15,838 nt of DNA from SAR116 cluster bacterium. Lineage in GTDB: Bacteria; Pseudomonadota; Alphaproteobacteria; Puniceispirillales; Marisalimonadaceae. The position numbers and the translations under genes are program-made. The stretch is taken from assembly GCA_002691795.1 (NCBI GenBank), contig NZIY01000003.1, forward strand, positions 1-15,838. The letters run 5' to 3'. The notes below the pieces were generated by a model. It was not told where the DNA came from and did not search any database. It worked only from the letters and a program-made list of their open reading frames with translations. This document shows, one piece after another, positions 1-15,674 of the stretch (its first letter is position 1; the number at the start of each line of letters is the position of its first letter).

Positions 1-206
1 ATAGAGATAATGTTAAACTTAAGATGGTATCAAAGGCGAATATTTTAAAAGATGAAATTATCAATGAAGATAACATACATTTTTTAAGAGCATCTAGTGA
101 TGGTATTGAATTGAATGAATTTAAAAACTTAAGACAACTTTTTTCTCGAAGTGCAATACCCAAAGACACTCTAATTCAATGGAAAGATTTAAAAATAAAT
201 TTATGA
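1..206 (+). CDS. NeuB-family synthase, C-terminal SAF domain only (5'-truncated by window edge)
   Basis: The reading frame is open from the first complete codon at base 3 to a TGA at 204-206, about 67 residues, so the gene begins to the left of the window. The translation matches the C-terminal SAF (antifreeze-like) domain of N-acetylneuraminate synthase-family proteins. It starts VSKANILKDEIINEDNI and ends with AIPKDTLIQWKDL. The same positions of the complete NeuB homologue at 4553-5581 read VSKKTIKTGELLTKDL and DIPKDTLLSYEMF. In this family the SAF domain closes over the active site of the partner subunit. The catalytic barrel is not visible here, so the substrate cannot be judged. The gene's stop overlaps the next gene's ATG (ATGA), so the two are probably translationally coupled. 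The internal ATG at 24 is not a likely start because the domain homology continues upstream of it. Confidence 0.8.
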   Translation, partial: RDNVKLKMVSKANILKDEIINEDNIHFLRASSDGIELNEFKNLRQLFSRSAIPKDTLIQWKDLKINL

Positions 207-1405
207 AAAATAAAATTACATTAATGATAATTGGATCAGGATGGGAACAGGTCCCAATTATAAAAAAAGCTTATGAAAATGAATATGAACTTGTATTAAC
301 AGATCAAAATCCAAATGCTGAAGGGTTTAAATATAGTAAAATCAATGAAATTTTAGACCCAAGAAACTTAATTTTAGGATTAGAAATTGCTAGAAAGTAT
401 AATGTTGACGGTATTATTGCAGATCAATGTGATTACTCACGGTATGCTGCAAAATTGTTAGTAAATGTTCTAAAAAATAAACAGAATGAAATATGTGATA
501 TACAATTTACAACAAACAAAAAATGGATGAGAAAAAATTGTAAAAAAAATAAAATAGAACAGCCAAGGTTTTTTAATTGTCATACACTTGAACAAATTGA
601 ATTTGCATCAAAAAAAATTGGTTTTCCATTGATAATAAAACCAGTCGATAACAGAGGAAATTTTGGGGTTTCAAAAGTTGAAAAATCATCTGAAATTAAG
701 AAAGCTTTTTTTGATGGTATAATAAATTCTCACTCTAGAGAAGTTTTAGTCGAAGAGTTTATTGAGGGGGTTCACGTAACTGTCGATGGATGTTTAGATA
801 GAAAAGGTGTACATCATAACCTTTGCATTGCTACAAAAAATATAAAAAAAGGGAATAAACCAATAATAACGGATGTTTTATATCCTGGAAATCTTACAGA
901 TATACAAATAGAAAAAATTTATAGTATTAATAATAAAATTGTTAAATCATTATCCATAAGTGAGGGGTTAACTCATTCAGAATTCATTATTAATAAAAAA
1001 AACAAGTGTTATTTGGTAGAGATCGCGAATCGAGGGGGCGGAGTTTTAACTTCGTCTACTATTGTGCCTGAATTAAGTAACGTAGACACAAACAATTTAC
1101 TAATTTCAAATTCGCTTAACAAAAAATTTGAATTTAAATTTCATAAATCAAAAAAAATTATTCTATTACATTTTTTGAATTTTAAATCTGGAAAAATTTT
1201 TAAAATTAATGGTATACGAGATATAATTAAAATTAAAAACATAATGCATTTAAGGCTTAACTTTAAAAAAGGTGATTTCATTAAATCACCAACCTCAGGC
1301 TCAAAAAGGCATGGATTTGTTATTTTAAAAGGAGATACAAAGTCTGAAATTGATAAGTTATTAACAATGGTAAAAAAAAAATTGAAAGTAGAATATGATA
1401 GATAA
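203..1405 (+). CDS. ATP-grasp domain carboxylate ligase
   Basis: This is a 400-residue protein of the ATP-grasp superfamily (PurK/CarB-like arrangement), which activates a carboxylate as acyl-phosphate and couples it to an amine or similar nucleophile. An N-terminal Rossmann-like pre-ATP-grasp half (residues 1-100, start ITLMIIGSGWEQ) precedes the grasp core. The core has FPLIIKP with K146 for ATP phosphates, VEEFIEG at 183-189, GLTHSEFII at 255-263 and the metal/ATP motif EIANRGGG at 273-280. A C-terminal domain of about 90 residues follows. An upstream ATG at 179 is open, but the ATG at 203 is preferred because it forms an ATGA overlap with the upstream stop and opens directly into the first beta strand. 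The position between NeuB-type genes suggests it ligates an acyl or aminoacyl group to a keto-sugar or its amino precursor. That role is inference; the substrate is unknown. Confidence 0.85.
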   Translation: MKNKITLMIIGSGWEQVPIIKKAYENEYELVLTDQNPNAEGFKYSKINEILDPRNLILGLEIARKYNVDGIIADQCDYSRYAAKLLVNVLKNKQNEICDIQFTTNKKWMRKNCKKNKIEQPRFFNCHTLEQIEFASKKIGFPLIIKPVDNRGNFGVSKVEKSSEIKKAFFDGIINSHSREVLVEEFIEGVHVTVDGCLDRKGVHHNLCIATKNIKKGNKPIITDVLYPGNLTDIQIEKIYSINNKIVKSLSISEGLTHSEFIINKKNKCYLVEIANRGGGVLTSSTIVPELSNVDTNNLLISNSLNKKFEFKFHKSKKIILLHFLNFKSGKIFKINGIRDIIKIKNIMHLRLNFKKGDFIKSPTSGSKRHGFVILKGDTKSEIDKLLTMVKKKLKVEYDR

Positions 1406-2078
1406 CCTGAAAGAAAGAAAAAAAAAATTTTTTTTTAAAAATATTTTTCAAAATGTGAATAAACGCTATGAAGATAGGTTTAAAAAATTTGGGGATGATC
1501 CAAAAACACTTGGATGGGATAATTTAATTAATCAAAATGTTAGATTTAAAACTGCTTATGCTAACACTGATTTTAAAAATAGAAAAATTTTAGATGTAGG
1601 TTGTGGCCTTGGAAATTATTATGAGTTTTTATTAAAAAGTTTAAAGAAGACACAATTTACTTATACCGGCATTGATATAAATTCAAGTTTTATTAAACTT
1701 TGTAAATTGAAACATGAAAATGCAGAATTTTTTGTAAAAAATATTTTAACAGATGATATAAAAAAAAGGACATGGAATATAGTTACAATGTTTGGATTAC
1801 TGAATTTAAAAATTGAAGGAATTGATAAATATGAGTTTGCTAGAGACATGATTAATTCAGCATTTGATGTAAGCAATGATATTTTAATTGTAGACATGCT
1901 TAGTACTAAGTTCGATAAATCTTATAAAAAGGAAACATTTGTTAACTATTTTGATCCTTTAAAATTAATGAATATAGCCTTTAAATTATCACCAAATGTA
2001 AAATTAATTCATGATTATGCTTCAATACCTCAAAGAGAATTTATGTTAATTATTAGAAAAAAAACATGCAAATATTAG
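1395..2078 (+). CDS. Class I SAM-dependent methyltransferase
   Basis: This 227-residue protein has the Rossmann-type SAM-binding fold. Motif I, ILDVGCGLG, lies at residues 65-73, and the acidic residue after beta 2 that contacts the SAM ribose is D94 in YTGIDIN. The basic N-terminal 60 residues (YEDRFKKFGDDPKTLGWDN) are ahead of the fold and probably form a lid over the substrate. The C-terminal strands end in REFMLIIRK, typical of the final hairpin in this superfamily. It starts 11 bases before the stop of the ATP-grasp gene and ends 13 bases inside the amidohydrolase gene, so it is embedded in a coupled operon. A role as O- or N-methyltransferase acting on the pathway product or its acyl side group fits the context. 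The acceptor cannot be read from sequence. Confidence 0.85.
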   Translation: MIDNLKERKKKFFFKNIFQNVNKRYEDRFKKFGDDPKTLGWDNLINQNVRFKTAYANTDFKNRKILDVGCGLGNYYEFLLKSLKKTQFTYTGIDINSSFIKLCKLKHENAEFFVKNILTDDIKKRTWNIVTMFGLLNLKIEGIDKYEFARDMINSAFDVSNDILIVDMLSTKFDKSYKKETFVNYFDPLKLMNIAFKLSPNVKLIHDYASIPQREFMLIIRKKTCKY

Positions 2079-2851
2079 ATAGCTTTCTTCATCCTGTAAT
2101 AAAACCTTCAGAAGATGGTTTGTTTAATATTTCAAATGATTTGTTATTTAAAAATTTAGAATATTTAAAAAAACAAATGTCATTTAATAATATTGTAAAG
2201 AGTAATGTGATTTTATTCAATAATGAATTGGTTGAAAGTCTACCTTTGAATTATAAAGATTTTTTTTATTTTTCTGTACTAGCTAGTTTTAGAGAATATA
2301 AAAGCGATGATTATTTTGAAATATTAATAAAAAAAAATGTTAAGAATATAGTATTCCATCCTTATCTTCAAAATATAAAAAAAAGAGATTGGAATGATTG
2401 TGTTGAATTTGTAAAGAAAGCTGAAAGATTAGGGTTTATCATTACAATATGTACAGCATATGGGAGTAAAAAGATATACGATATTGACATTTTACCATTT
2501 GCTTTACATATAGCAAATAATGTAAAGTCGCCAATAATTTTTTCCCATTGTGGGGGATTAAAAATATTAGATGCGATGTTAATTGCTGAGAATTTTAAAA
2601 ATATTTATTTTGATACATCTTTTTCTTTAAGTTATTGGGTAGGCAGTAGTGTAGAAAAAGATATAGCTTTTGTTATAAATAAAATTGGTGTGAATAGGTT
2701 TCTTTTTGGTTCAGATTTTCCTTTTGTTGATATATCAAAAGCAATTGAAGATCAGATTATTTTTCTTAATAAATGGAAATTTTCTTCTAATGAAACAGAA
2801 CTTGTGATGAAAATAAATGCAGAAGAACTTTTTTCTAGGTTTTTTTTATGA
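2066..2851 (+). CDS. Amidohydrolase-2-like TIM-barrel protein with altered metal ligands
   Basis: This 261-residue protein resembles the Amidohydro_2 group (metal-dependent hydrolases and decarboxylases). Family landmarks are present in order: VFHPYLQN at 97-103 (the usual KxHPxxQ strand), FSHCGG at 159-164 (H161), the YFDTSFS strand at 181-187, FLFGSDFPF at 212-220 carrying the catalytic Asp D217, and a C-terminal helix resembling the usual N-A-x-x-L-F ending (INAEELFSRFF). Two canonical ligand positions are not conserved. The N-terminal H-x-H reads F-L-H (LDSFLHP, residues 4-10), and the barrel His of the usual HTG is a Cys (TICTA, 127-131). It may bind metal differently, act without a bound metal, or be a lyase or binding protein. 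Its start overlaps the methyltransferase stop and its stop overlaps the aldolase start (ATGA at 2848). Confidence 0.75.
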   Translation: MQILDSFLHPVIKPSEDGLFNISNDLLFKNLEYLKKQMSFNNIVKSNVILFNNELVESLPLNYKDFFYFSVLASFREYKSDDYFEILIKKNVKNIVFHPYLQNIKKRDWNDCVEFVKKAERLGFIITICTAYGSKKIYDIDILPFALHIANNVKSPIIFSHCGGLKILDAMLIAENFKNIYFDTSFSLSYWVGSSVEKDIAFVINKIGVNRFLFGSDFPFVDISKAIEDQIIFLNKWKFSSNETELVMKINAEELFSRFFL

Positions 2852-3864
2852 TTAATAATTATAAAGTTTTTGATGCAACATTAAGAGATAGTAGTTATGC
2901 AGTAAACTTTCAGTTTTCAAAACAAGATACAATGGAAATTTGTTATGAGCTAGAAAAAAGTGGTATTAATTATATTGAAGTTGGCCATGGGCTTGGATTA
3001 GGTGCTTCTTCATCCAAGCTAGGTTTTGCAAAAGAAAAAGATGTTGATTATCTGATCGCAGCTAGAAATAGTTTAAAAAAAGCAAAATTTGGAGCCTTTT
3101 TTATACCAGGAATTGGTAATAATAGTGATATTAAAAAAGCTGAAAAAGAAGGTGCAAGCTTTATTAGAATAGGACAAGACATTAATAAAATTGATGAATG
3201 CAGAAATTTTTGTGATTTAGCCAAAAATTCAAACCTTACTGTTTTTGTTAATGCTATGAAGACTTATTTAATTACACCAATTCAGTTGGCAAAAGTAGTC
3301 AAAAAAATTGATGATTGGAACAATACTGACATTTTTTATATTGTTGATTCTTCAGGTTCAATGTTACCAAGTGACATTAAAGAATATTTAAAAGTTGTGA
3401 AAGATAATACAAATATGGAAATAGGATTTCATGGTCATAATAATCTTGGAATGGCTAATGCAAACAGCTGTATTGCCCTTGAAAATGGTGCTAGCTTTAT
3501 TGATGGAACTTTAGGTGGAGTTGGAAGAAGTGCAGGAAATGCTCAAACGGAAATTTTATGCGATTTAGCATTTCGTTTTGATAAAGGGAAAACATATGAT
3601 ATACCAAGACTTTTTAAACTTTTTGAGAAAAATATACTGCCAATGATAAAGGAAAACCAAGGTATAAAGCCAGTTGATGTTATGTTAGGAATATCTAAAA
3701 TACATTCAAGTCATTTAACTAAAATAAAAAATATAGCGGATAAGTATAAAATTAATTTTTACAATTTTTTATATGAATTAAAGAGTTTGTCTAATCAAGA
3801 AGTTACAGATGAAGTAGTTGAAAATTTAGCCGCAAGTTTAAAAAGTAAATATTTTGAGGAATAA
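2848..3864 (+). CDS. 4-hydroxy-2-oxovalerate aldolase-like DRE-TIM metallolyase
   Basis: This 338-residue HMGL/DRE-TIM barrel protein is very close in length and layout to MhpE/DmpG 4-hydroxy-2-oxovalerate aldolases, which split or form 4-hydroxy-2-oxoacids (pyruvate plus aldehyde). Recognisable elements are DATLRDSSYAVNFQF at 9-23 (R13, metal Asp D14), IEVGHGLGLGASSSKLGF at 43-60, the metal-binding GFHGHNNLGMANANS at 193-207 (H195, H197), and DGTLGGVGRSAGNAQTE at 219-235. The C-terminal helices match the aldolase-specific domain. At the position of the catalytic His after the TLRD motif in MhpE and BphI there is a Tyr (Y17). The C-terminal VYSS of MhpE reads IHSS (285-288). The substrate is therefore probably not hydroxyoxovalerate. 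The next gene starts at the base after this stop. A role in supplying or cleaving a 2-oxo acid for a NeuB-type product is inference. Confidence 0.85.
   Translation: MINNYKVFDATLRDSSYAVNFQFSKQDTMEICYELEKSGINYIEVGHGLGLGASSSKLGFAKEKDVDYLIAARNSLKKAKFGAFFIPGIGNNSDIKKAEKEGASFIRIGQDINKIDECRNFCDLAKNSNLTVFVNAMKTYLITPIQLAKVVKKIDDWNNTDIFYIVDSSGSMLPSDIKEYLKVVKDNTNMEIGFHGHNNLGMANANSCIALENGASFIDGTLGGVGRSAGNAQTEILCDLAFRFDKGKTYDIPRLFKLFEKNILPMIKENQGIKPVDVMLGISKIHSSHLTKIKNIADKYKINFYNFLYELKSLSNQEVTDEVVENLAASLKSKYFEE
3856..3860 (+). promoter_or_regulatory. Shine-Dalgarno for the PIG-L gene
   Basis: GAGGA lies four bases before the ATG at 3865, inside the last codons of the aldolase gene. It is one of the few clear ribosome-binding sites in the window and fixes the start of the deacetylase gene directly after the upstream TAA. 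Confidence 0.55.
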
Positions 3865-4560
3865 ATGAATAAAGTACTGGTTATAGCAGCTCACCCTGAT
3901 GACGAGGTTTTAGGTTGTGGGGGTGTAATAGCAAAGCATGTAAATAATGGTGATAAAGTAGATGTTTTAATTGCCGCAGAGGGGATTACTAGTCGAACCC
4001 CTAAATTAATAGAAAAAGAAAAGTTAGATAAATTAAAAAGTGAGGCTGAAAGAGCAAATAAATTATTGGGTGTTAATAATTTATATTTTGAAGGTTTACC
4101 TGATAATAGACTTGATAAACTATTAAGATTAGAGACTGTAAAAATAATTGAAAAATATATTGAAAAGACTAAACCACACATAATTTATACCCACCATTCA
4201 GGAGATGTTAACATTGATCATCAGATACTTCATCACTCAGTAGTTACAGCATGTAGACCTATTCCAGGAATAGGAATAAAAGATTTATTATTTTTTGAAG
4301 TCTTGTCAAGTACAGAATGGCAAACCCCATATTCAAGTACAAGTTTTACACCAAACTGGTTTGTTGAAATAGATAATACCATTGATTTAAAGTTAAAATC
4401 ACTCAATAGTTACACTACTGAAATGAGAGATTGGCCTCATCCAAGATCAATTAAAGGCGCAGAAATCCTTGCTTCTCATAGAGGAGCATCAATAGGGGTT
4501 AATTATGCTGAAGCTTTTATGTTAGGAAGAAAAATAATAAGAGAGGAATTAAATGAGTAA
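3865..4560 (+). CDS. PIG-L/LmbE family zinc-dependent deacetylase
   Basis: This 231-residue protein has the PIG-L fold and is a normal length for the family. The N-terminal strand leads into AAHPDDEVLGCGG (8-20), where H10 and D13 are zinc ligands and the neighbouring Asp acts as general base. The second half of the site is THHSGDVNIDHQ (109-120), which supplies the third ligand H119. Family members remove N-acetyl groups from amino sugars or their derivatives (GlcNAc-PI, GlcNAc-Ins, BshB-type malyl-GlcN precursors, lipid-linked sugars). It is placed between an aldolase and a NeuB homologue. It may therefore expose a free amine on a pathway intermediate, which the ATP-grasp enzyme could then acylate. 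That link is inference. The start abuts the upstream stop, and the 3' end overlaps the next gene by eight bases. Confidence 0.9.
   Translation: MNKVLVIAAHPDDEVLGCGGVIAKHVNNGDKVDVLIAAEGITSRTPKLIEKEKLDKLKSEAERANKLLGVNNLYFEGLPDNRLDKLLRLETVKIIEKYIEKTKPHIIYTHHSGDVNIDHQILHHSVVTACRPIPGIGIKDLLFFEVLSSTEWQTPYSSTSFTPNWFVEIDNTIDLKLKSLNSYTTEMRDWPHPRSIKGAEILASHRGASIGVNYAEAFMLGRKIIREELNE
4541..4547 (+). promoter_or_regulatory. Shine-Dalgarno for the NeuB-like gene
   Basis: GAGAGGA ends five bases before the ATG at 4553, within the end of the PIG-L gene. It supports the start that overlaps the PIG-L stop by eight bases. Confidence 0.55.
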
Positions 4561-5581
4561 TTTTAAAGATTTAAATGGAGCTTCATGTTATGTGATTGCA
4601 GAAGCAGGGTTAAATCACAACGGTTCTATTGAAATAGCAAAAAAATTGATTGATTTAGCGCATATTGCAGGTTCTAATGCTGTCAAATTTCAAAAAAGGA
4701 CAGTTCAAATATTAGCTGTAAAAGATACGTTATACGCTAAAGATAATAGATTTCCAGAGTTTGGTAGTACATATAAAGAGATAAGAGAGCATTTAGAGTT
4801 TACTTTTGAACAATATCAAGAGCTTAAAGAGTATACAGAGAATAAAAACATGGATTTTATTGTTACTGGATTTGATATAGAGGCAATTGACTTTCTTATT
4901 AAATTAAAAGTCAAAAGTATAAAATTAGCAAGCCACAGCTTAACTAACACTGAATTATTAGATTACGTTTCTTCAAAAAAAATACCAGTGATTTTATCTA
5001 CTGGAATGGCTGATTTTGAAGAGATTGATAAAGCAGTAGAAATATTTAAATCAAAAAATTCTCCTTTATCTCTATTACATTGTGTTTCATCTTATCCTAC
5101 ACCTACAAAAGATTGTAATTTGTCCATGATTCAAGTTTTAAAAGAACGATATGGTCTGCAAACTGGTTATTCTGGTCATGAGTTAGGATATTTACCCAGT
5201 TTAGTAGCAGTATCTAAGGGAGCTGAAATTATAGAAAGACACTATACTTTGGATAATGATATGATTGGTTTTGATCATAAAATGTCACTTTCACCTCAAC
5301 AATTCATAGAAATGGTAAAACTTATAAGAGATATTGATGATGTTTTGGGAAATGGTAAGAAAACAATACTTGAAGCCGAATGGATCACTAGAAACAAATA
5401 TCATGTTTCAATGGTATCTAAAAAAACAATTAAAACTGGAGAACTTTTGACCAAAGATTTGGTCGAATACAAAAATCCTGGTACAGGAATCCCTCATAAA
5501 GATTCAGACAAAATTTATGGGAAAATTGCAGTAAAAGATATTCCTAAGGATACTCTTCTTAGTTATGAAATGTTTAAGTAA
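4553..5581 (+). CDS. N-acetylneuraminate synthase-family (NeuB-like) protein
   Basis: This is a 342-residue complete NeuB-type enzyme. The family condenses phosphoenolpyruvate with a six-carbon amino sugar to give a nine-carbon 2-keto-3-deoxy acid. The TIM barrel (about 10-265) shows VIAEAGLNHNG (14-24), AVKFQKRT (43-50), ILSTGM (147-152), SLLHCVSSYPTP (173-184), GYSGHELG (205-212) and IIERHYTLD (226-234). H209 and H230 correspond to the two manganese-binding His of Neisseria NeuB and have the same 21-residue spacing. Residues 284-342 form the SAF domain (VSKKTIKTGELLTKDL, GTGIPHKD). Departures from classical sialic/legionaminic synthases include ASHSLTN where KIGSxD-type motifs normally sit and DHKMSLSP in place of DHKASLEP. 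A different acceptor sugar is therefore plausible. It is the last gene of the coupled run. Confidence 0.88.
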   Translation: MSNFKDLNGASCYVIAEAGLNHNGSIEIAKKLIDLAHIAGSNAVKFQKRTVQILAVKDTLYAKDNRFPEFGSTYKEIREHLEFTFEQYQELKEYTENKNMDFIVTGFDIEAIDFLIKLKVKSIKLASHSLTNTELLDYVSSKKIPVILSTGMADFEEIDKAVEIFKSKNSPLSLLHCVSSYPTPTKDCNLSMIQVLKERYGLQTGYSGHELGYLPSLVAVSKGAEIIERHYTLDNDMIGFDHKMSLSPQQFIEMVKLIRDIDDVLGNGKKTILEAEWITRNKYHVSMVSKKTIKTGELLTKDLVEYKNPGTGIPHKDSDKIYGKIAVKDIPKDTLLSYEMFK

Positions 5582-7566: not shown

Positions 7567-8466
7567 ATGATTGATTTAATTAATAAACTTAAAATAAATG
7601 GCTTCGTAAACGCTGGAAAGACTGGTTTGTCTTCTAATGAAATTAATGAATTATCAAATCTAGCAAATTCTATATTTGAAAAATTTAGAAATAAAAAAAT
7701 GAAACAAAAGTTTGCGAGTGATTATTTTCCACCTAAAGAAGGTTCTGAGATAGTAGCAAGATTCCCCCAACAAGATCTTAGAGCTTTCGAACTTATTGAA
7801 AAAATTTTAAATAAGAAAAAAATTCATTCAGTTTTAGAAAATGTATTAGGTAAAAATTATCGATTAACACAGATTGGCCTTAGAAGATCATTAACCACAG
7901 ATAAAGGACTTTATCTGCATCAAGATGCTGAAGGGGAAACAAATTTAGGAATAATGTTGTCAGATAATTTAGAAGGAAACGGCTCCACAATTTTTTTGCC
8001 AACATCTCATTTAGTTAAAACTAGAATGAAAGTATGGAATATTGAAACACCGCCCTTTGTTATGAAGTATTTTTCTATAATTATGAAAAAAATTAAAGGT
8101 GAAAAAGGAGATTGTTTCTTTTTTTTTAATAGAACTTGGCATGGTCGAAGTTCAAATAATTCAAATAATCATAATGATGTAATTCTTATGAGTTTTTTTC
8201 CAGAAAATGGAAATTTTGAAAAGGACAATTGGAACAAATACTTTTTAAGAGCAATAAAAGGATCAAAATTTTTTGAATTGATTAATACTAATAAAATAAA
8301 TTGGTCTTCAAAAGAACCAACAAAAAAGCCTTTTGCTTTAAGAATTGAAAAAGATAAAATTAAAAATAGTTTCTTAAATAAATTCAAATTATTTACTTTA
8401 ATTATTTTACTTCGTAGTTTGTTCAAGATCTACAGGTCTACAAAAAAAATGTTAAAATTTAATTAG
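7567..8466 (+). CDS. PhyH-type Fe(II)/2-oxoglutarate dioxygenase
   Basis: This 299-residue protein resembles phytanoyl-CoA dioxygenase-family oxygenases. The iron-binding facial triad is visible: HQD in GLYLHQDAEGE (H118, D120) and the distal His H192 in FNRTWHGRSS. The strand GNGSTIFLPTSH (137-148) and the turn GEKGDCFFFF (178-187) are standard for the double-stranded beta-helix core. The Arg that binds 2-oxoglutarate usually sits about ten residues after the distal His. Here that stretch is Asn/Ser-rich, leaving R194 as the nearest candidate. The C-terminal 90 residues are basic, with a hydrophobic helix near 275-290 that may sit at the membrane. Six bases separate it from the legB-like gene, so hydroxylation of the sugar or its acyl group is likely; the substrate is inferred only from context. 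Confidence 0.8.
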   Translation: MIDLINKLKINGFVNAGKTGLSSNEINELSNLANSIFEKFRNKKMKQKFASDYFPPKEGSEIVARFPQQDLRAFELIEKILNKKKIHSVLENVLGKNYRLTQIGLRRSLTTDKGLYLHQDAEGETNLGIMLSDNLEGNGSTIFLPTSHLVKTRMKVWNIETPPFVMKYFSIIMKKIKGEKGDCFFFFNRTWHGRSSNNSNNHNDVILMSFFPENGNFEKDNWNKYFLRAIKGSKFFELINTNKINWSSKEPTKKPFALRIEKDKIKNSFLNKFKLFTLIILLRSLFKIYRSTKKMLKFN

Positions 8467-8472
8467 GGTAGA

Positions 8473-9468
8473 ATGAAGATATTAGTCACAGGTGCCAATG
8501 GTTTTATAGGCTCACATTTAGTTGAAAAACTTGTTCAAGATGGTTTCAATGTAAAGGCTTTTGTAAATTATAATTCACTAAACTCAATAGGCTGGTTAAG
8601 CAATTCATCAAAAAAGATTTTAAATAATTGTGAAATTTTTCATGGGGATGTTAGAGATCCAAATGGGGTTTATGAAGCTTTAAAAAATTGTGACACGGTA
8701 ATACATTTAGCTGCTTTAATTTCAATACCATATTCTTATTATTCACCTGATATGTATATAGAAACTAATGTAAAGGGTACTTTAAATATTCTACAGGCAG
8801 CAAGAAAATTAAATATTAGAAAAATTATTCATACATCAACAAGTGAAGTTTATGGATCAGCAATTTCGATCCCCATAAATGAAAAACATCCATTACAGGC
8901 TCAATCCCCATATTCTGCGTCAAAAATTTCTGCAGACCAATTAGCACTTTCATTTTATAGATCATTTGGCTTACCAGTTTCTGTGATTAGGCCATTTAAT
9001 ACATTCGGTCCAAGGCAATCGGCTAGAGCTATAATACCGACAATTATTACTCAAATTTTATCCGGAGCAAAAGAAATTAAAGTTGGATCATTGTATCCTA
9101 GAAGAGATTTTACATTTATCAACGATACTGTAAATGGATTTATAAAATCAATAGAAGCAAAAAATATCGAAGGAGAAATAATCAATTTAGGTACAAATCA
9201 TGATATTTCAATTTCTGATATAATATCATTAATTTTTGAGATTTTTGAAATAGAATTGACAATTGTTTCTGATAATAAACGCATAAGGCCAAAAAAGTCT
9301 GAGGTAGATAGACTCTTATCTGATAACACTCTAGCAAGCAAATTAATAAATTGGTCACCATTATTTAAAGATAAAGAAGGTTTTAAATTAGGTTTAAAAA
9401 TGACAATAGAATGGTTTAGAAAAAAAGAAAATTTTCAAAAATATAATATTAAAGATTTTAACTTTTAA
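8473..9468 (+). CDS. legB: LegB-like nucleotide-sugar 4,6-dehydratase
   Basis: This is a 331-residue extended short-chain dehydrogenase. The NAD-binding motif is VTGANGFIGSH (5-15), the 4,6-dehydratase active site is TSTSEVYGSA (121-130), and the catalytic Tyr/Lys are in YSASK (147-151). The segment AFVNYNSLNSIGWL (29-42) is characteristic of the LegB group that converts UDP- or GDP-GlcNAc to the 4-keto-6-deoxy sugar at the head of the legionaminic acid pathway. PFNTFGPRQSARAIIPT and RRDFTFINDT are also conserved in that group. The length is normal. The following LegC-type aminotransferase supports the assignment. Whether the product becomes legionaminic acid or another 6-deoxy-4-amino sugar is not fixed by these two genes. 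Confidence 0.87.
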   Translation: MKILVTGANGFIGSHLVEKLVQDGFNVKAFVNYNSLNSIGWLSNSSKKILNNCEIFHGDVRDPNGVYEALKNCDTVIHLAALISIPYSYYSPDMYIETNVKGTLNILQAARKLNIRKIIHTSTSEVYGSAISIPINEKHPLQAQSPYSASKISADQLALSFYRSFGLPVSVIRPFNTFGPRQSARAIIPTIITQILSGAKEIKVGSLYPRRDFTFINDTVNGFIKSIEAKNIEGEIINLGTNHDISISDIISLIFEIFEIELTIVSDNKRIRPKKSEVDRLLSDNTLASKLINWSPLFKDKEGFKLGLKMTIEWFRKKENFQKYNIKDFNF

Positions 9469-9648: not shown

Positions 9649-10836
9649 ATGATCGACGAAAACTCTATAGCTAAAAAAATTATATCTGTAATTAGATCAA
9701 TTGCAGGAAATAATGACCTTTATTTACATGAACCATTATTTTTTGGCAACGAGTGGAGTTATTTAAAAAATTGTTTAGATACAACTTATGTTTCATCAGT
9801 TGGAAAATATGTCAATGAGTTTGAAGAAAAAATATCAGATTTCACTGGATCGAAGTTTGTTGTTGCAGTTGTAAACGGTACATCTGCGTTACATATTGGG
9901 CTAAAATTATGTGGAGTTGTTCCAAAAGATGAAGTTCTTGTGCCCTCCTTCACATTTGTTGGCACAGTTAACTCTATATCTTATAATAATGCTATTCCAC
10001 ATTTTGTTGATATAGAACAAGAAACATTAGGAATAGATACAAAAAAATTATTACAATATTTATATGAAAATACATATGTAAAAAATGGAATATGTATAAA
10101 CAAATTGACTGGGAGAATTATAAGAGCAATAATCCCAGTCCATACATTTGGTCACCCTTCAAATTTAGATGATCTCATAACTATCTCAAAAAAATTTAAA
10201 ATAAAATTAATTGAGGACGCAGCTGAATCTCTAGGCAGTTTTTTTAAAGGAAAGCATACTGGAACATTTGGAGATTTGGGAGTAATTAGTTTTAACGGTA
10301 ATAAAACTATTACGACAGGTAATGGTGGTGCAATATTAACTAATTCATATGATTTAGCAAAAAGAGCTAGACATTTAACAACCACTGCTAAAGTTCCGCA
10401 TAAATGGGAATATTTACATGACGAAATAGGGTATAATTACAGAATGTCAAATGTAAATGCAGCTATAGGGTGTGCTCAATTAGAAAATTTAAAGACTATT
10501 TTATTGTCAAAAAGAAAATTATACGAAGTATATTCTAATAAGTTTTCAAGAATTTCAGAATTAACATTATTCAAGGAGCCTAGTAATTGTGAAAGTAACT
10601 ATTGGTTACAAACCATAATTCTCAAAAATGAAAACAAAAAAGAATTAGAAGTGATATTAAGAGAGACAAATAAAAATAGAATTTTTACAAGGCCAGCTTG
10701 GAAATTAATTAGCGAACTAAAACCATATCAAGATTGTCCAAAAATGGATTTGACTTGCTCAAAATCACTGTCCAAAAGAGTGATTAATATTCCGAGTAGC
10801 CCAAACATTTTAAGAGATATAAATAATAATGGATGA
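9649..10836 (+). CDS. legC: LegC-family PLP-dependent nucleotide-sugar aminotransferase
   Basis: This is a 395-residue DegT/DnrJ/EryC1-type aminotransferase. Family features are SSVGKYVNEFEEKISDFTG (49-67), the cofactor phosphate loop NGTSAL (76-81), VPSFTFVGTVNSI (98-110), the Asp that contacts the pyridine nitrogen in IEDAAESLGS (188-197), and the Schiff-base lysine K219 in SFNGNKTITTGNGGA. The C-terminal segment RVINIPSSPNI is typical of the LegC branch. It transfers an amino group to C4 of the 4-keto-6-deoxy sugar made by the LegB-like enzyme. The stop at 10834-10836 overlaps the ATG of a broken acetyltransferase that would have acylated this amine. The start at 9649 follows the unassigned gap and has no strong Shine-Dalgarno. 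Confidence 0.88.
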   Translation: MIDENSIAKKIISVIRSIAGNNDLYLHEPLFFGNEWSYLKNCLDTTYVSSVGKYVNEFEEKISDFTGSKFVVAVVNGTSALHIGLKLCGVVPKDEVLVPSFTFVGTVNSISYNNAIPHFVDIEQETLGIDTKKLLQYLYENTYVKNGICINKLTGRIIRAIIPVHTFGHPSNLDDLITISKKFKIKLIEDAAESLGSFFKGKHTGTFGDLGVISFNGNKTITTGNGGAILTNSYDLAKRARHLTTTAKVPHKWEYLHDEIGYNYRMSNVNAAIGCAQLENLKTILLSKRKLYEVYSNKFSRISELTLFKEPSNCESNYWLQTIILKNENKKELEVILRETNKNRIFTRPAWKLISELKPYQDCPKMDLTCSKSLSKRVINIPSSPNILRDINNNG

Positions 10837-11221
10837 AATACTAATTATCGGTGCTGGGGGACATTCGAAGTCATCTATAGATTTGACAGAAAAAACAGGA
10901 TTATTTAAAATAAAGGGTTAAATTGGAACAAAAGAAGAAATTAATAATAAAATTTAAGCTTATGTTTGTAGGATTTCAAATAAGCAATAGAATAAAATTT
11001 TAAGAAAACATCATATTGAAAATTTGATCAAATTAGTGAACAAAAAAAATACTTAAAACTGTAGATGATGAAATTTTTTGAAAATAAATAAATCAAGTTT
11101 TAATATCTAGAAAGATATTAGAATACATCACTTTTACAGATGTTGAATTTAAATATTGATTGGTCTTGGACAAATTTTAAATATTATTAAGTTCAGATTA
11201 AAGAAGAATATTAAAAAATAG
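10829..11221 (+). pseudogene. Decayed PglD/NeuD/LegH-like sugar N-acetyltransferase
   Basis: An ATG overlapping the legC stop by eight bases opens with MDEILIIGAGGHSKSSIDL, the nucleotide-sugar-binding N-terminus of PglD/NeuD/LegH acetyltransferases (consensus ILIIGAGGHAKxxID). It breaks at TAA 10919-10921. In the same frame beyond the stop the text reads IGTKEEINNKI, as expected for that domain, until another TAA. Both stops sit where a Leu codon (TTA) would be natural, so each needs a single T-to-A change. Further on, FVGFQISNRIK appears in a second frame and IGLGQILNI, like a hexapeptide-repeat coil, at about 11159-11185 in another. The pieces keep the gene's order but not its frame. The right boundary is approximate. 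Loss of this gene would leave the LegC product without its normal N4-acetylation enzyme from this locus. Confidence 0.72.
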
Positions 11222-11471
11222 ATTATCTGTTTTTTTAAAAAAATGAGTTTATGAAGTTCTAAAAATCTGATATTCCTTTTTCATAAACTATGTAACCAAA
11301 TGAAATAGTATTAAGTTTTATAATTTAATTAGTGAATTGTTAAATAAAAAGTAATAAAATATTTCAAATAATTTATGTGGAACGATTTAAAAAATATTTC
11401 AATTTATTTGATATGATAATAATTAATTAAAAGTCATTAAAGTAAAAAGTTTCTGTTATCGGATAATTAAA
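11222..11471. other. About 250 bases without a recognisable gene
   Basis: Both strands were read and stops are frequent in every frame. Together with the decayed acetyltransferase it makes a non-coding stretch of roughly 635 bases between legC and the next intact gene, the longest in the window. It may hold further unrecognisable decay products. The only structure seen is one inverted repeat near its left end (11246-11289). No promoter could be assigned with confidence, although the genes that follow may need one. Confidence 0.5.
11246..11289. repeat. 10-bp perfect inverted repeat
   Basis: AGTTTATGAA at 11246-11255 is matched by its reverse complement TTCATAAACT at 11280-11289, with 24 bases between. 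It could form a hairpin or be an operator-like dyad. In AT-rich DNA of this length such a match can arise by chance, so no function is assigned. Confidence 0.3.
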
Positions 11472-12149: not shown

Positions 12150-13898
12150 ATGAAAATTCTTGGTATTCATGATGGTCATAATAGTAGTGCTTGTCTATTA
12201 ATCAATGGAGATGTTAAGTTTGCAATACAAGAAGAAAGACTCAGTCGAATAAAAAATTATTGGGGTATTCCTGAGTTAGCAATTAAAAATTGTCTTAAGA
12301 GTCATAAGTTATCTATTAAGGATATAGATTTAATAGCGATTGCTTCAAATAATCAGTTTTTAATACCAAAACAAAACATAACAAGAGATAGTTATATGTC
12401 TTCCATGCATTTAGCTCTTGAGGGAAATTTTTCATTAAGACAGCATATTTCACTAATTAAAGCTACATTATTTGATAAAATAAAATTAAATAATTTTAGC
12501 AATAAAAAAAATTATCGTGTCAAATTCTATGAAGATATTTTTGGTAAATTATTTGCAAGAAAAATTATTTTCATAGATCATCACTTTTCTCATTATGCCA
12601 CTGCAACTTTTGGAAGTGGCTTTTGGGGTAAGCATAAATTTTTAACGTTCACACTTGATGGACAAGGTGATGGCTTATGTGGAACTGTTCATTTAATTGA
12701 TAAAAAAAGAAAAGTTACAAAACTTACAGAAATCCCTGCAAATAATTCTATAGCAAATTTTTATGGTATTATAACTGTATGTTTAGGATTCAATATTTGG
12801 GAAGATGAATATAAAATCATGGGTATGGCTCCATATGCAAACCCCTTAAAAGCACAAAAAATCGGCAATAAATTTTTAGAATTATTTGACTGGTTTGGAG
12901 AAGACTTCAAAATGAAAGATGATATTAAAAGATTTATGGATAGAGATGAAAGGGAATTAAAAAAAAGAATAAATGAAATTACTAAATTTGAAAGATTTGA
13001 TAATATATGTGGAGGTATTCAACATGCCTTTGAAGAAATAGTATCACAATGGATTAATAATTATATAATTAAATATGATGTAAAATATGTTGCTTTGGCT
13101 GGTGGCGCATTTATGAATGTAAAAGCAAATTTAAAAGTTTCACAACTCTCGAAAATTGATAATTTGTTCATATATCCTTCGTGTGGTGATGAAACGATTT
13201 CTATTGGCGCTGCAATGGCCGCTTATTTTAAAAAACTTGAAAAAGCACCAATTCCAGTAAAAGATATATATTATGGGAATAGCTACAAAAATTCCTTAAA
13301 AAAACCAATAAACTTTATAAAACAAAATAAAAATTTAAAAATTTTTAGAGAAAAAAATATTGAAAAAAAATGTGCCGAACTACTTACTGAAAATCAAATT
13401 ATTGCTAGATTTTCCGGCTGTAGTGAGTTTGGTGCTCGGGCATTAGGAAATCGTTCAATACTAGCAAACCCTAGTAATATTGATAATGTAAGAATTATTA
13501 ATGATATGATTAAGAAAAGAGATTTTTGGATGCCTTTTGCCTGTTCAATAATTGAAGATGAAGCTAATAAATATCTTCATAACAAAAAAAACATTTCTTC
13601 TCCGTATATGATAATGTCGTTTTTGTGTGATAAAAATACAGATAAAATTCAAGCTAGTATTCATCCTCGAGATAATACCGTTAGACCTCAGATTGTAAAA
13701 CAAAAAGATAATCCCAAATACTATCAACTTATTAAATATTTCAATGAGATTACTGAAATAGGAGGTGTTTTAAATACTTCATTTAATTTACATGGGTTTC
13801 CATTAGTAGAAAAACCTGATGATGCTATAAAAGTTTTTCTAAATTCAGGACTTAGATATTTAGCTCTTGAAGAATATTTAATAGAAAAAACTAATTAA
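12150..13898 (+). CDS. O-carbamoyltransferase, NodU/CmcH/TobZ family
   Basis: This 582-residue protein matches family carbamoyltransferases, which use carbamoyl phosphate and ATP, by way of a carbamoyl-adenylate, to carbamoylate a hydroxyl on a sugar or antibiotic. The N-terminal Kae1-like domain has ILGIHDGHNSSA (3-14), EERLSRIKN (28-36), the metal-binding DHHFSHYATA (H144, H148), TFTLDGQGDG (D170) and EYKIMGMAPYANP. AGGAFMNVKANL (about 317-328) and YPSCGDETISIGAA complete it. The C-terminal domain carries FSGCSEFGARALGNRSIL (about 421-438) and VLNTSFNLHGFPL (about 539-551). No key motif is missing and length is normal. Its place next to a methyltransferase and an LIC12162-family transferase suggests carbamoylation of a surface-glycan residue. 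The target sugar is unknown. Confidence 0.93.
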   Translation: MKILGIHDGHNSSACLLINGDVKFAIQEERLSRIKNYWGIPELAIKNCLKSHKLSIKDIDLIAIASNNQFLIPKQNITRDSYMSSMHLALEGNFSLRQHISLIKATLFDKIKLNNFSNKKNYRVKFYEDIFGKLFARKIIFIDHHFSHYATATFGSGFWGKHKFLTFTLDGQGDGLCGTVHLIDKKRKVTKLTEIPANNSIANFYGIITVCLGFNIWEDEYKIMGMAPYANPLKAQKIGNKFLELFDWFGEDFKMKDDIKRFMDRDERELKKRINEITKFERFDNICGGIQHAFEEIVSQWINNYIIKYDVKYVALAGGAFMNVKANLKVSQLSKIDNLFIYPSCGDETISIGAAMAAYFKKLEKAPIPVKDIYYGNSYKNSLKKPINFIKQNKNLKIFREKNIEKKCAELLTENQIIARFSGCSEFGARALGNRSILANPSNIDNVRIINDMIKKRDFWMPFACSIIEDEANKYLHNKKNISSPYMIMSFLCDKNTDKIQASIHPRDNTVRPQIVKQKDNPKYYQLIKYFNEITEIGGVLNTSFNLHGFPLVEKPDDAIKVFLNSGLRYLALEEYLIEKTN

Positions 13899-13922: not shown

Positions 13923-15674
13923 ATGGATTATCACTTAGTTACATCGTTAGATATAAAGACATGGCATAATCATAAATGTAATATAATTATAGGTGATTGG
14001 AACATTGGTGAAAATAAATTTTATAGAGGATTTAATTATAAAATTTTGTCATCTAATGAAATTTTAGGTAATAATCTAAATAGATTAGTTAAAAAAATTA
14101 ATGAAATTTATAGTACAATTTCTCCCCTATTATATAAAAAACTTAATGTCTATCACAATTGTGATTATAGTGATAGATACTGGAATATTATTCTTGGGCA
14201 TTGGTTATATAGATGTATATCTGTCTTTGTATATAGATTTAATGTCACTGAGAAAGTTTTAAGTAAATATAATATTACTGGAGCCTCAATAGCTGTTGAC
14301 AAAAATAATAATTTAATTGCTAAAAATAGTCTTTCCTTTGTTTATGCATGTGAAGATCAAGTATGGAATAGTTTTTTATATGGTAAGATCATAGAAAAAA
14401 TAACTGACAATAATTTTTTGAAATCATATATAGAAGTTAAGTCATCAAAAAATTTTATTTATCAAACTGAGAGAAAAAAAAGTAAATTTAAAAATTTAAT
14501 TAATGATTTACTATTTAGTAAATTACCAACTTTATTATATAATGAAACTGATGCTTGTATTATAGACAGTTATTTATCAAAAGTTAATGAATTAAAATTA
14601 AATATTTTACTTAAGCAATTACCGCGAAAATATCATTTTCCAGAAGTTAATTATAATTATTCTGTGAATAGAAGTAAATTTGGAAAAATTAATATAATTT
14701 CAAAAGACCCTATAATTAAATTTTTCACAGAAATTTTAAAAGATATTTTGCCTATGAGTTTTGTAGAAAACTACAAAGACATTGATAGCATGGCAAAAAA
14801 ACTTCCATTTCCAAAAAAACCTAAATTTATTTTTACTTCTAATGCTTATGATTATAATGAAATCTTTAAAGTATGGGTAGCAAATAAATGTGAGCAAGGA
14901 TATAAATATATTGTTGGGCAACATGGGAATAATTATAATACCCATTTACTTTTTGGTAATAAAATTCTTCCAGAATTATCATCAACTGATGGATTTTTTA
15001 CTTGGGGTTGGAAGAACAAATCTGAAAATATTATTCAAGGATTTAATTTTAAATCTAATAAAAGAAGACAAATACATAACAAAAAAGGTGGGTTGCTTAT
15101 TATTTGTCAACCAAGAGAAGATAGATGGCAACCAATAGATGTTGAAACAAATTTCAAAAAAAGTTTAAGTGATAATAAAACTCTTTTAGATAACTTGCAT
15201 GATAAAATAAAAAAGGAAGTAACTCTTAAGTATAGAGTACAAAACACAAATTTTATGAAAACAAATTTTTTTATTAAAAATTTTTCAAATTTTAAAATTG
15301 AAAACCATAAATTTGATTTAGATGTTAACTTAAAGAAAAATCGTTTGGTAATTTTTAATTACGATTCAACTGGAATTTTGGAACTCTTATGTAGAAACAT
15401 TCCGTTTATTGCTCTTTTAAGAAACGATTTAAAATATAGAAAAACTCACGCAAATAAAATGTATCAAATAATGTTTGATAATAAAATATTCCATCATAAT
15501 GCGAAATCTGCATCGAAATTCATAAATAATAATTGGAATACTATTGAAAAATGGTGGTATAGTTCAGAAGTCACAAAAGCTAAGGTTAGTTTTAGTAATA
15601 ATTATTCAAGAAGTACAAGTAATACTTCAAAAGATTTGCTTTTTAAAATTGATAAACATTTATCAAATATTTAA
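13923..15674 (+). CDS. LIC12162-family putative transferase
   Basis: This 583-residue protein resembles the LIC12162 family named after a Leptospira gene in a polysaccharide region. Its biochemical role is not established as far as I know. Visible family hallmarks are a short N-terminal segment with LVTSLDIKTWH, then IIIGDW, YWNIILGHWLYRCISV (about residues 85-101), the loop VGQHGNNYNTHLLF (about 329-342) and FFTWGW (about 357-362) in the C-terminal half. NYDSTGILELLCRNIPFIALL and the following Arg/His-rich segment resemble the donor-side half of GT-B glycosyltransferases, with the pattern of a conserved Glu near a Pro-containing strand. No membrane segment is obvious, so it is probably cytoplasmic. 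It may be the transferase for the unusual sugar made here; that is inference. Twenty-four bases separate it from the carbamoyltransferase gene. Confidence 0.72.
   Translation: MDYHLVTSLDIKTWHNHKCNIIIGDWNIGENKFYRGFNYKILSSNEILGNNLNRLVKKINEIYSTISPLLYKKLNVYHNCDYSDRYWNIILGHWLYRCISVFVYRFNVTEKVLSKYNITGASIAVDKNNNLIAKNSLSFVYACEDQVWNSFLYGKIIEKITDNNFLKSYIEVKSSKNFIYQTERKKSKFKNLINDLLFSKLPTLLYNETDACIIDSYLSKVNELKLNILLKQLPRKYHFPEVNYNYSVNRSKFGKINIISKDPIIKFFTEILKDILPMSFVENYKDIDSMAKKLPFPKKPKFIFTSNAYDYNEIFKVWVANKCEQGYKYIVGQHGNNYNTHLLFGNKILPELSSTDGFFTWGWKNKSENIIQGFNFKSNKRRQIHNKKGGLLIICQPREDRWQPIDVETNFKKSLSDNKTLLDNLHDKIKKEVTLKYRVQNTNFMKTNFFIKNFSNFKIENHKFDLDVNLKKNRLVIFNYDSTGILELLCRNIPFIALLRNDLKYRKTHANKMYQIMFDNKIFHHNAKSASKFINNNWNTIEKWWYSSEVTKAKVSFSNNYSRSTSNTSKDLLFKIDKHLSNI

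What the first reader, a model, noticed from the sequence alone, without database searches (positions are those of the whole stretch)
1..5581. Seven-gene coupled cassette bracketed by two NeuB-family genes: candidate undescribed keto-sugar-acid pathway
Seen: NeuB-like SAF domain, ATP-grasp ligase, methyltransferase, altered amidohydrolase, MhpE/DmpG-like aldolase, PIG-L deacetylase and a second NeuB-like synthase run without any gap. Starts overlap stops by 4-13 bases or abut them. Known: NeuB enzymes make nonulosonic acids, PIG-L enzymes deacetylate amino sugars, ATP-grasp enzymes make amide-type bonds, and DRE-TIM aldolases handle 2-oxo acids. Inference: the set makes and tailors one unusual acid, for example by deacetylating an amino sugar, ligating a different acid to it and methylating it. 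I do not recognise a described pathway with this complement.
Basis: partly seen in the sequence, partly recalled or inferred. Interest (0 to 1): 0.8.

Follow-up and report, generated by a model that had tools for sequence, protein, structure and literature searches.

The report
Custom-acid module for bacterial sialic-acid-like sugars
A tightly packed set of genes in an uncultured bacterium, with close counterparts in other phyla, probably builds an unusual small acid and attaches it to a sialic-acid-like surface sugar in place of the usual acetyl group.

Summary
The cassette is real: a weakly matching NeuB tail cut by the contig edge, then ATP-grasp ligase, methyltransferase, altered amidohydrolase, MhpE/DmpG-like aldolase, PIG-L deacetylase and complete NeuB, overlapping or abutting at all six junctions. 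LegB and LegC lie downstream; LegG/LegI/PtmE/LegF-like genes are on another contig of the assembly. The acyltransferase gene expected after legC survives only as a decayed stub, the only PglD_N over cut-off in the 85% complete assembly. Relatives show a recurring core: the ligase family lies in 17 of 80 aldolase loci (up to 10 kb each side) and 7 of 18 new amidohydrolase loci. All 17 of those aldolases carry Tyr where DmpG has His21. Only 1 of 118 amidohydrolases keeps both His of the HxH site. The three nearest ligases (L003, L006, L120; two other phyla) lie with NulO-type genes, though L003 shows only a PseG-like fragment. Best reading: the module makes a methylated acid and ligates it to the amine that LegC or PIG-L exposes, before NeuB adds PEP. 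Against it: most distant relatives show no NeuB within reach, and the aldolase step varies.

The parts
3..206 (+). C-terminal tail (67 residues) of an NeuB-like synthase, cut by the contig edge
   Evidence: weak (below Pfam cut-off)
179..1405 (+). ATP-grasp carboxylate-amine ligase (PF13535, LAL_C2 PF18603); probable true start 203
1395..2078 (+). SAM methyltransferase (MT1) with an N-terminal Y..R....G......G motif shared with L003, L006, L010, L016, L124-L126, L135, L136
2066..2851 (+). Amidohydro_2 (PF04909) protein with degraded HxH metal site; H98, H161, D217 kept; fold among COG3618/PDC hydrolases and other amidohydrolases
2848..3864 (+). HMGL-like aldolase (DmpG/MhpE relatives), Tyr17 in place of DmpG His21, no DmpG communication-domain match
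3865..4560 (+). PIG-L de-N-acetylase with AHPDDE and DxNxDHQ motifs
4553..5581 (+). complete NeuB-family synthase with SAF domain
8473..9468 (+). LegB, nucleotide-sugar 4,6-dehydratase (TIGR04180, 476.2 bits against cut-off 475)
9649..10836 (+). LegC family aminotransferase (TIGR04181, 521.3 bits against 420)
10829..10984 (+). decayed remnant of a PglD/NeuD/LegH-type acyltransferase gene; stops in all frames up to 11471

Best explanation
The cassette is an acyl-customising module of a nonulosonic acid pathway. LegB and LegC make a nucleotide-linked 4-amino-4,6-dideoxy sugar (families shown, activity not). The Tyr-type aldolase joins pyruvate or a similar 2-oxo acid to an aldehyde, giving a hydroxy-oxo acid (inferred). 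The metal-site-poor amidohydrolase processes that acid, perhaps as a lactonase or hydratase (inferred). The methyltransferase methylates it (inferred). The ATP-grasp ligase joins the acid by an amide bond to the sugar amine exposed by LegC or freed by PIG-L (inferred). NeuB then condenses the acylated hexosamine with PEP (family known), and a CMP-transferase encoded on another contig activates the product. The decayed acyltransferase stub after legC suggests that the ligase has taken over from acetylation.
For: Tight packing. Leg genes in the window and complementary 2-epimerase, NeuB, CBS+NTP-transferase and CMP-transferase genes on contig C58. Decayed PglD_N stub: 26.6 bits against cut-off 23.4, two TAA stops, the only match over cut-off in the assembly (a second match of 15.6 bits is below it). 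Ligase in 17 of 80 aldolase loci: 16 of the 40 with the highest aldolase scores, 1 of the other 40; 17 of 33 Tyr-type loci and 0 of 47 others, 21 of which the motif could not type. Listed amidohydrolase and aldolase proteins share exact longest-contig lengths in 27 of 73 cases (at least 3 kb) against about 0.2 expected by jitter. L006 carries PseB, PseC, PseF and Pse_Me-ase over cut-off plus NeuB, ligase, aldolase, methyltransferase, amidohydrolase, PseG-like and PIG-L; L120 carries PseB and PseC over cut-off plus ligase, NeuB, amidohydrolase, PseG-like and PIG-L. Precedent: Shewanella sfmABCDE has NeuB, SAM methyltransferase and ATP-grasp_4, with a 236 Da moiety carrying extra methyls on a NulO (PMC3765264).
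Confidence: 0.55

Rival explanations
1. The ligase module acylates a 4-amino hexose used as such in the surface polysaccharide, not a nonulosonic acid; NeuB proximity reflects only a shared polysaccharide locus.
For: The ligase with amidohydrolase and/or aldolase occurs without NeuB or PseG-like genes in L013, L016, L024, L123-L126, L019, L020, L022, L026, L052, L073, some with DegT-type aminotransferases.
Against: The window's PIG-L and NeuB abut or overlap the module; the ligase clade nearest the window has NeuB or PseG-like genes in 4 of 4, one by a fragment only.
Confidence: 0.2
2. The ligase attaches an amino acid or peptide-like group made by the other genes, as an ATP-grasp protein may do in the type B flagellin glycan locus of C. 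difficile, and the aldolase product is first aminated to a 4-hydroxy amino acid.
For: LAL_C2 domain over cut-off; best solved match is L-amino acid ligase BL00235 (3vot); C. difficile ATP-grasp CDR20291_0245 in a flagellin glycan locus (PMC5207246); class I/II aminotransferase-family genes near the amidohydrolase in L123 and L124.
Against: Among the window genes scanned LegC is the only aminotransferase.
Confidence: 0.15
3. The aldolase, amidohydrolase and the two NeuBs act on the keto-sugar acid itself, making a new ulosonic acid skeleton.
For: Two NeuB-family sequences flank the cassette.
Against: 12 of 17 aldolase loci with the ligase show neither NeuB nor PseG-like genes; the left NeuB is a weak fragment.
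Confidence: 0.07
4. The contig is a contaminant or chimera in the assembly, so its link with the C58 Leg genes means nothing.
For: 4.25% contamination; in 60 relatives the aldolase has no match at E 1e-30 and the amidohydrolase only weak partial ones.
Against: Window LegB/LegC and C58 LegG/LegI/PtmE/LegF-like genes complement one another; the module itself recurs elsewhere whatever its host.
Confidence: 0.08

Closest known systems
Shewanella oneidensis sfmABCDE flagellin modification operon (PMC3765264; passages and Discussion seen)
   Same: NeuB-family synthase, SAM methyltransferase and ATP-grasp_4 protein in one operon; a NulO carries a further moiety with variable methylation
   Different: has an IlvB-like enzyme and a reductase, not an aldolase and amidohydrolase; PIG-L is not among its five genes; whether its ligase belongs to the same family was not tested
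[quoted passage not shown] PMC3068675, passages seen)
   Same: a methylated short acid decorating a NulO
   Different: the terms ATP-grasp and amidohydrolase do not occur in that main text; Cj1295 itself was not compared here
CMP-legionaminic acid pathway (LegB/LegC/LegH/LegG/LegI/LegF/PtmE; gene set recalled)
   Same: LegB and LegC over cut-offs in the window; LegG-, LegI-, PtmE- and LegF-like genes on C58
   Different: the acyltransferase gene next to legC is decayed, and a ligase module with a further NeuB is added
DmpG/MhpE 4-hydroxy-2-oxovalerate aldolases
   Same: closest solved relatives by sequence (8ih7, 1nvm); Arg-Asp and the HxH motif align
   Different: Tyr17 for His21; no communication-domain match; no aldehyde dehydrogenase found among the scanned window genes
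2-pyrone-4,6-dicarboxylate hydrolase LigI / COG3618
   Different: identity 10-14%; other amidohydrolases lie only 2-4 Z units lower; substrate unknown; HxH degraded
C. difficile type B flagellin glycan locus ATP-grasp CDR20291_0245 (PMC5207246, passages seen)
   Same: PF13535 protein in a glycan-modification locus
   Different: neighbours named in the passage are FemAB-like and ornithine-cyclodeaminase-like

Membership tests
Legionaminic acid pathway | LegB and LegC over NCBIfam cut-offs | tested here: met
   (476.2/475; 521.3/420)
Legionaminic acid pathway | 2-epimerase, NeuB/LegI and CMP-transferase in the genome | tested here: met
   contig C58, (Pfam level only; CMP-transferase cut by the contig end)
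Legionaminic acid pathway | LegH/NeuD-type N-acyltransferase | tested here: not met
   only a decayed PglD_N stub over cut-off in the assembly; assembly 85% complete, GNAT types not searched
4-hydroxy-2-oxovalerate aldolase (TIGR03217 equivalog) | score over the equivalog cut-off | tested here: not met
   234.4 against 286; passes the broader PRK08195 model (258.8/229)
4-hydroxy-2-oxovalerate aldolase | His21 catalytic base (role recalled) | tested here: not met
   Tyr17 aligns with 1nvm His21; Tyr in 120 of the 120 listed homologues, of 1365 found
Metal-dependent Amidohydro_2 | HxH on the first strand | tested here: not met
   FLH in the window; both His in 1 of 118 rows, first His in 6 (4 rows gapped there). 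More distant L005, L024, L135, L136 keep HxH
Metal-dependent Amidohydro_2 | strand-6 His and strand-8 Asp (roles recalled) | tested here: met
   H161 and D217 in 118 of 118 rows
PDC lactonase (LigI) | lactonase activity | not testable with these tools
   fold similarity only
ATP-grasp carboxylate-amine ligase | PF13535 over cut-off | tested here: met
   54.2/27; K154, E268, E281 invariant in 9 aligned rows, roles not tested
PIG-L de-N-acetylase | PF02585 over cut-off with AHPDDE motif | tested here: met
   97.8/28.2
sfmABCDE-type cassette | IlvB-like and reductase genes beside NeuB and ligase | tested here: not met
   not among the window's cassette genes

The most novel reading that the evidence does not exclude
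A portable pathway, exchanged between phyla, builds a methylated hydroxy acid from pyruvate with a Tyr-type aldolase and a metal-free lactonase-like amidohydrolase, and swaps it by an ATP-grasp ligase for the acetyl group of legionaminic or pseudaminic acids, with loss of the ancestral acyltransferase in this genome: a previously undescribed chemical class of nonulosonic acid.
Probability: 0.35. Interest if true: 0.75.

Novelty: new variant of a known kind. Interest (0 to 1): 0.6.

Why it matters
Nonulosonic acids shape bacterial surfaces, and their N-acyl groups are a main source of their variety. A gene signature for custom acyl groups would let one predict which bacteria make unusual ones, and offers an aldolase with a changed active site, an amidohydrolase with a degraded metal site and a sugar-acid ligase for testing.

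Tried and rejected
Paper searches for the gene combination showed no description of this set in their listings: (open-licence PMC library only; subscription papers are missing; listings were cut at 10-20 titles, and only four papers were opened, by passages or one section). The nearest were PMC3765264 and PMC5207246.

Leptospira as the described home of the cassette: aldolase homologues carry Leptospira names, but the passages seen of PMC4758666 do not describe this set, and no name in the list (most rows unnamed, 120 of 124 shown) is Leptospira.

A ThDP enzyme replacing the aldolase in L136 and L124 was suspected from gene length; Pfam gave no match, and L124 7953-9635 looks by eye like a membrane protein. 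Rejected.

PIG-L as a GalB-like hydratase was considered and set aside: several of its best solved matches are named deacetylases.

Weaker amidohydrolase hits without ligase or NulO genes (L127-L132, L134, L137; also L133 at 75 bits) may be generic members; they are kept in the denominators.

Limits of the counts: the profiles were built partly from L003-L082 members, so scores there are partly by construction; L120-L137 were not in training. L003's PseG-like gene is a 163-residue end fragment with no Pfam match. The jitter control is crude, and equal contig length is indirect evidence of linkage. The 118 rows are the window plus those of 120 listed proteins longer than 240 residues.
Full report
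What is there. The window is a whole contig, C81, of a 2.0 Mb, 85% complete assembly. Six complete genes and one fragment form the cassette, with junctions of -11, -13, -4, 0 and -8 bases and then +111 to the following ABC transporter gene. The fragment is the last 67 residues of an NeuB-like protein; its similarity to the window's own NeuB tail is weak (26% identity, E 1e-5). The ligase start at 203 gives an ATGA overlap with the fragment's stop and fits the alignment with L006.

Surroundings. LegB (TIGR04180) and LegC (TIGR04181) pass their cut-offs. Contig C58 of the same assembly carries a 2-epimerase (PF02350), another complete NeuB, a CBS plus nucleotidyltransferase protein (PtmE-like) and the start of a CMP-transferase gene. 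Together this is most of a CMP-legionaminic acid pathway (pathway recalled). Directly after legC, where an acyltransferase would be expected, there is a 30-codon PglD_N start (26.6 bits, cut-off 23.4) followed by stops in all three frames to the next gene. It is the only PglD_N over cut-off in the assembly; a second match, 15.6 bits, is below it. Stops scattered over some 550 bases in every frame look like gene decay, not a single sequencing error.

Recurrence. The ligase family lies in 17 of the 80 loci, methyltransferase MT1 in 5, the amidohydrolase in 7, PIG-L in 1, NeuB in 5 and PseG-like genes in 6; 16 of the 17 ligase loci are among the 40 with the highest aldolase scores. All 17 aldolases beside a ligase have Tyr at the DmpG His21 position, as have 16 without it; of the 47 other loci (25 His, 1 Asn, 21 not typed by the motif) none has the ligase. 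A protein search with the amidohydrolase profile gave 124 proteins, 120 listed; of the 73 listed with a longest contig of at least 3 kb, 27 share the exact length with a listed aldolase protein, against 0.2 expected. One such pair has consecutive locus tags (JWO08_3873 and JWO08_3874).

Independent sampling with the amidohydrolase profile. Genomes with a match at E at most 1e-10: own class 1 of 385 (the own genome), class of L006 7 of 395, phylum of L003 6 of 294, phylum of L005 3 of 193, phylum of L016 3 of 194, own phylum 4 of 249. Leaving out the own genome and the four seed genomes, 18 new loci (L120-L137) were fetched. Seven of 18 carry the ligase, 5 of 18 NeuB or PseG-like genes, 9 of 18 one or the other, and none the HMGL-type aldolase. 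L135 instead has an RraA-type aldolase between MT1 and a radical-SAM gene; L123 and L124 have class I/II aminotransferase-family genes. So the ligase and amidohydrolase are the steadier parts and the aldolase step varies.

Kinship. A ligase tree of 24 rows groups the window with L003 (Planctomycetota), L006 (Bacteroidota) and L120 (a genome drawn from the class of L006) at 100/99 support; L120 is a long branch, flagged as unsure. In 60 relatives, 12 of them of the same genus, the aldolase has no match at E 1e-30, and the amidohydrolase has only weak partial matches in ten. Horizontal exchange is the likely cause. L006 is a pseudaminic-type cluster: PseB, PseC, PseF and Pse_Me-ase over cut-offs, with NeuB, ligase, aldolase, MT1, amidohydrolase, PseG-like and PIG-L in a row. 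L120 has PseB and PseC over cut-offs.

Reading. Shown: gene content, linkage, decay of the stub, changed active-site positions. Inferred: that the aldolase, amidohydrolase and methyltransferase make the acid, that the ligase attaches it to the amine from LegC or PIG-L, and the order before NeuB. The described analogue is the Shewanella sfm operon, where mutants of the first four genes show flagellins near the unmodified mass and the extra moiety carries variable methyls; the ligase-gene mutant kept swimming motility (PMC3765264, passages and Discussion). Against the reading: 12 of 17 ligase-bearing aldolase loci show no NeuB or PseG-like gene, PIG-L joins only in three of the loci examined, and no chemistry is known. 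The verdict is a new variant of known NulO biosynthesis, with the product untested.

Noticed in passing
window 10829-11471: Decayed PglD/NeuD/LegH-type acyltransferase gene directly after legC.
   Followed up: yes
L004 9908-12073; L010, L012, L021, L024, L066: The aldolase is part of a long protein (624-722 residues); in L004 the extension has no Pfam match. As a group the extensions match stand-alone neighbours of the aldolase in L016, L052, L068 and L073 (hhalign 99.9%) and look Rossmann-like by eye.
   Followed up: partly
L004: A Hadesarchaea contig carries NeuB, PseG-like, LegC-like, ATP-grasp ligase and aldolase genes together.
   Followed up: partly
L007, L008, L009, L017: The same aldolase subfamily sits in loci sharing other gene families; three of them share a small protein of about 80 residues that may be an acyl carrier protein (a guess from size).
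   Followed up: no
window 7567-8466: 2OG-Fe(II) oxygenase-like protein of TIGR04436 (143.7 bits, below cut-off 200) between the ABC transporter and legB.
   Followed up: no
window 12150-13898: Carbamoyltransferase (PF02543, PF16861), which could carbamoylate the glycan.
   Followed up: no
window 13923-15674: LIC12162 family transferase over cut-off (295.1 against 225).
   Followed up: no
L135 12588-13373: RraA-type aldolase in the place of the HMGL-type aldolase, next to the methyltransferase and a radical-SAM/SPASM gene.
   Followed up: partly
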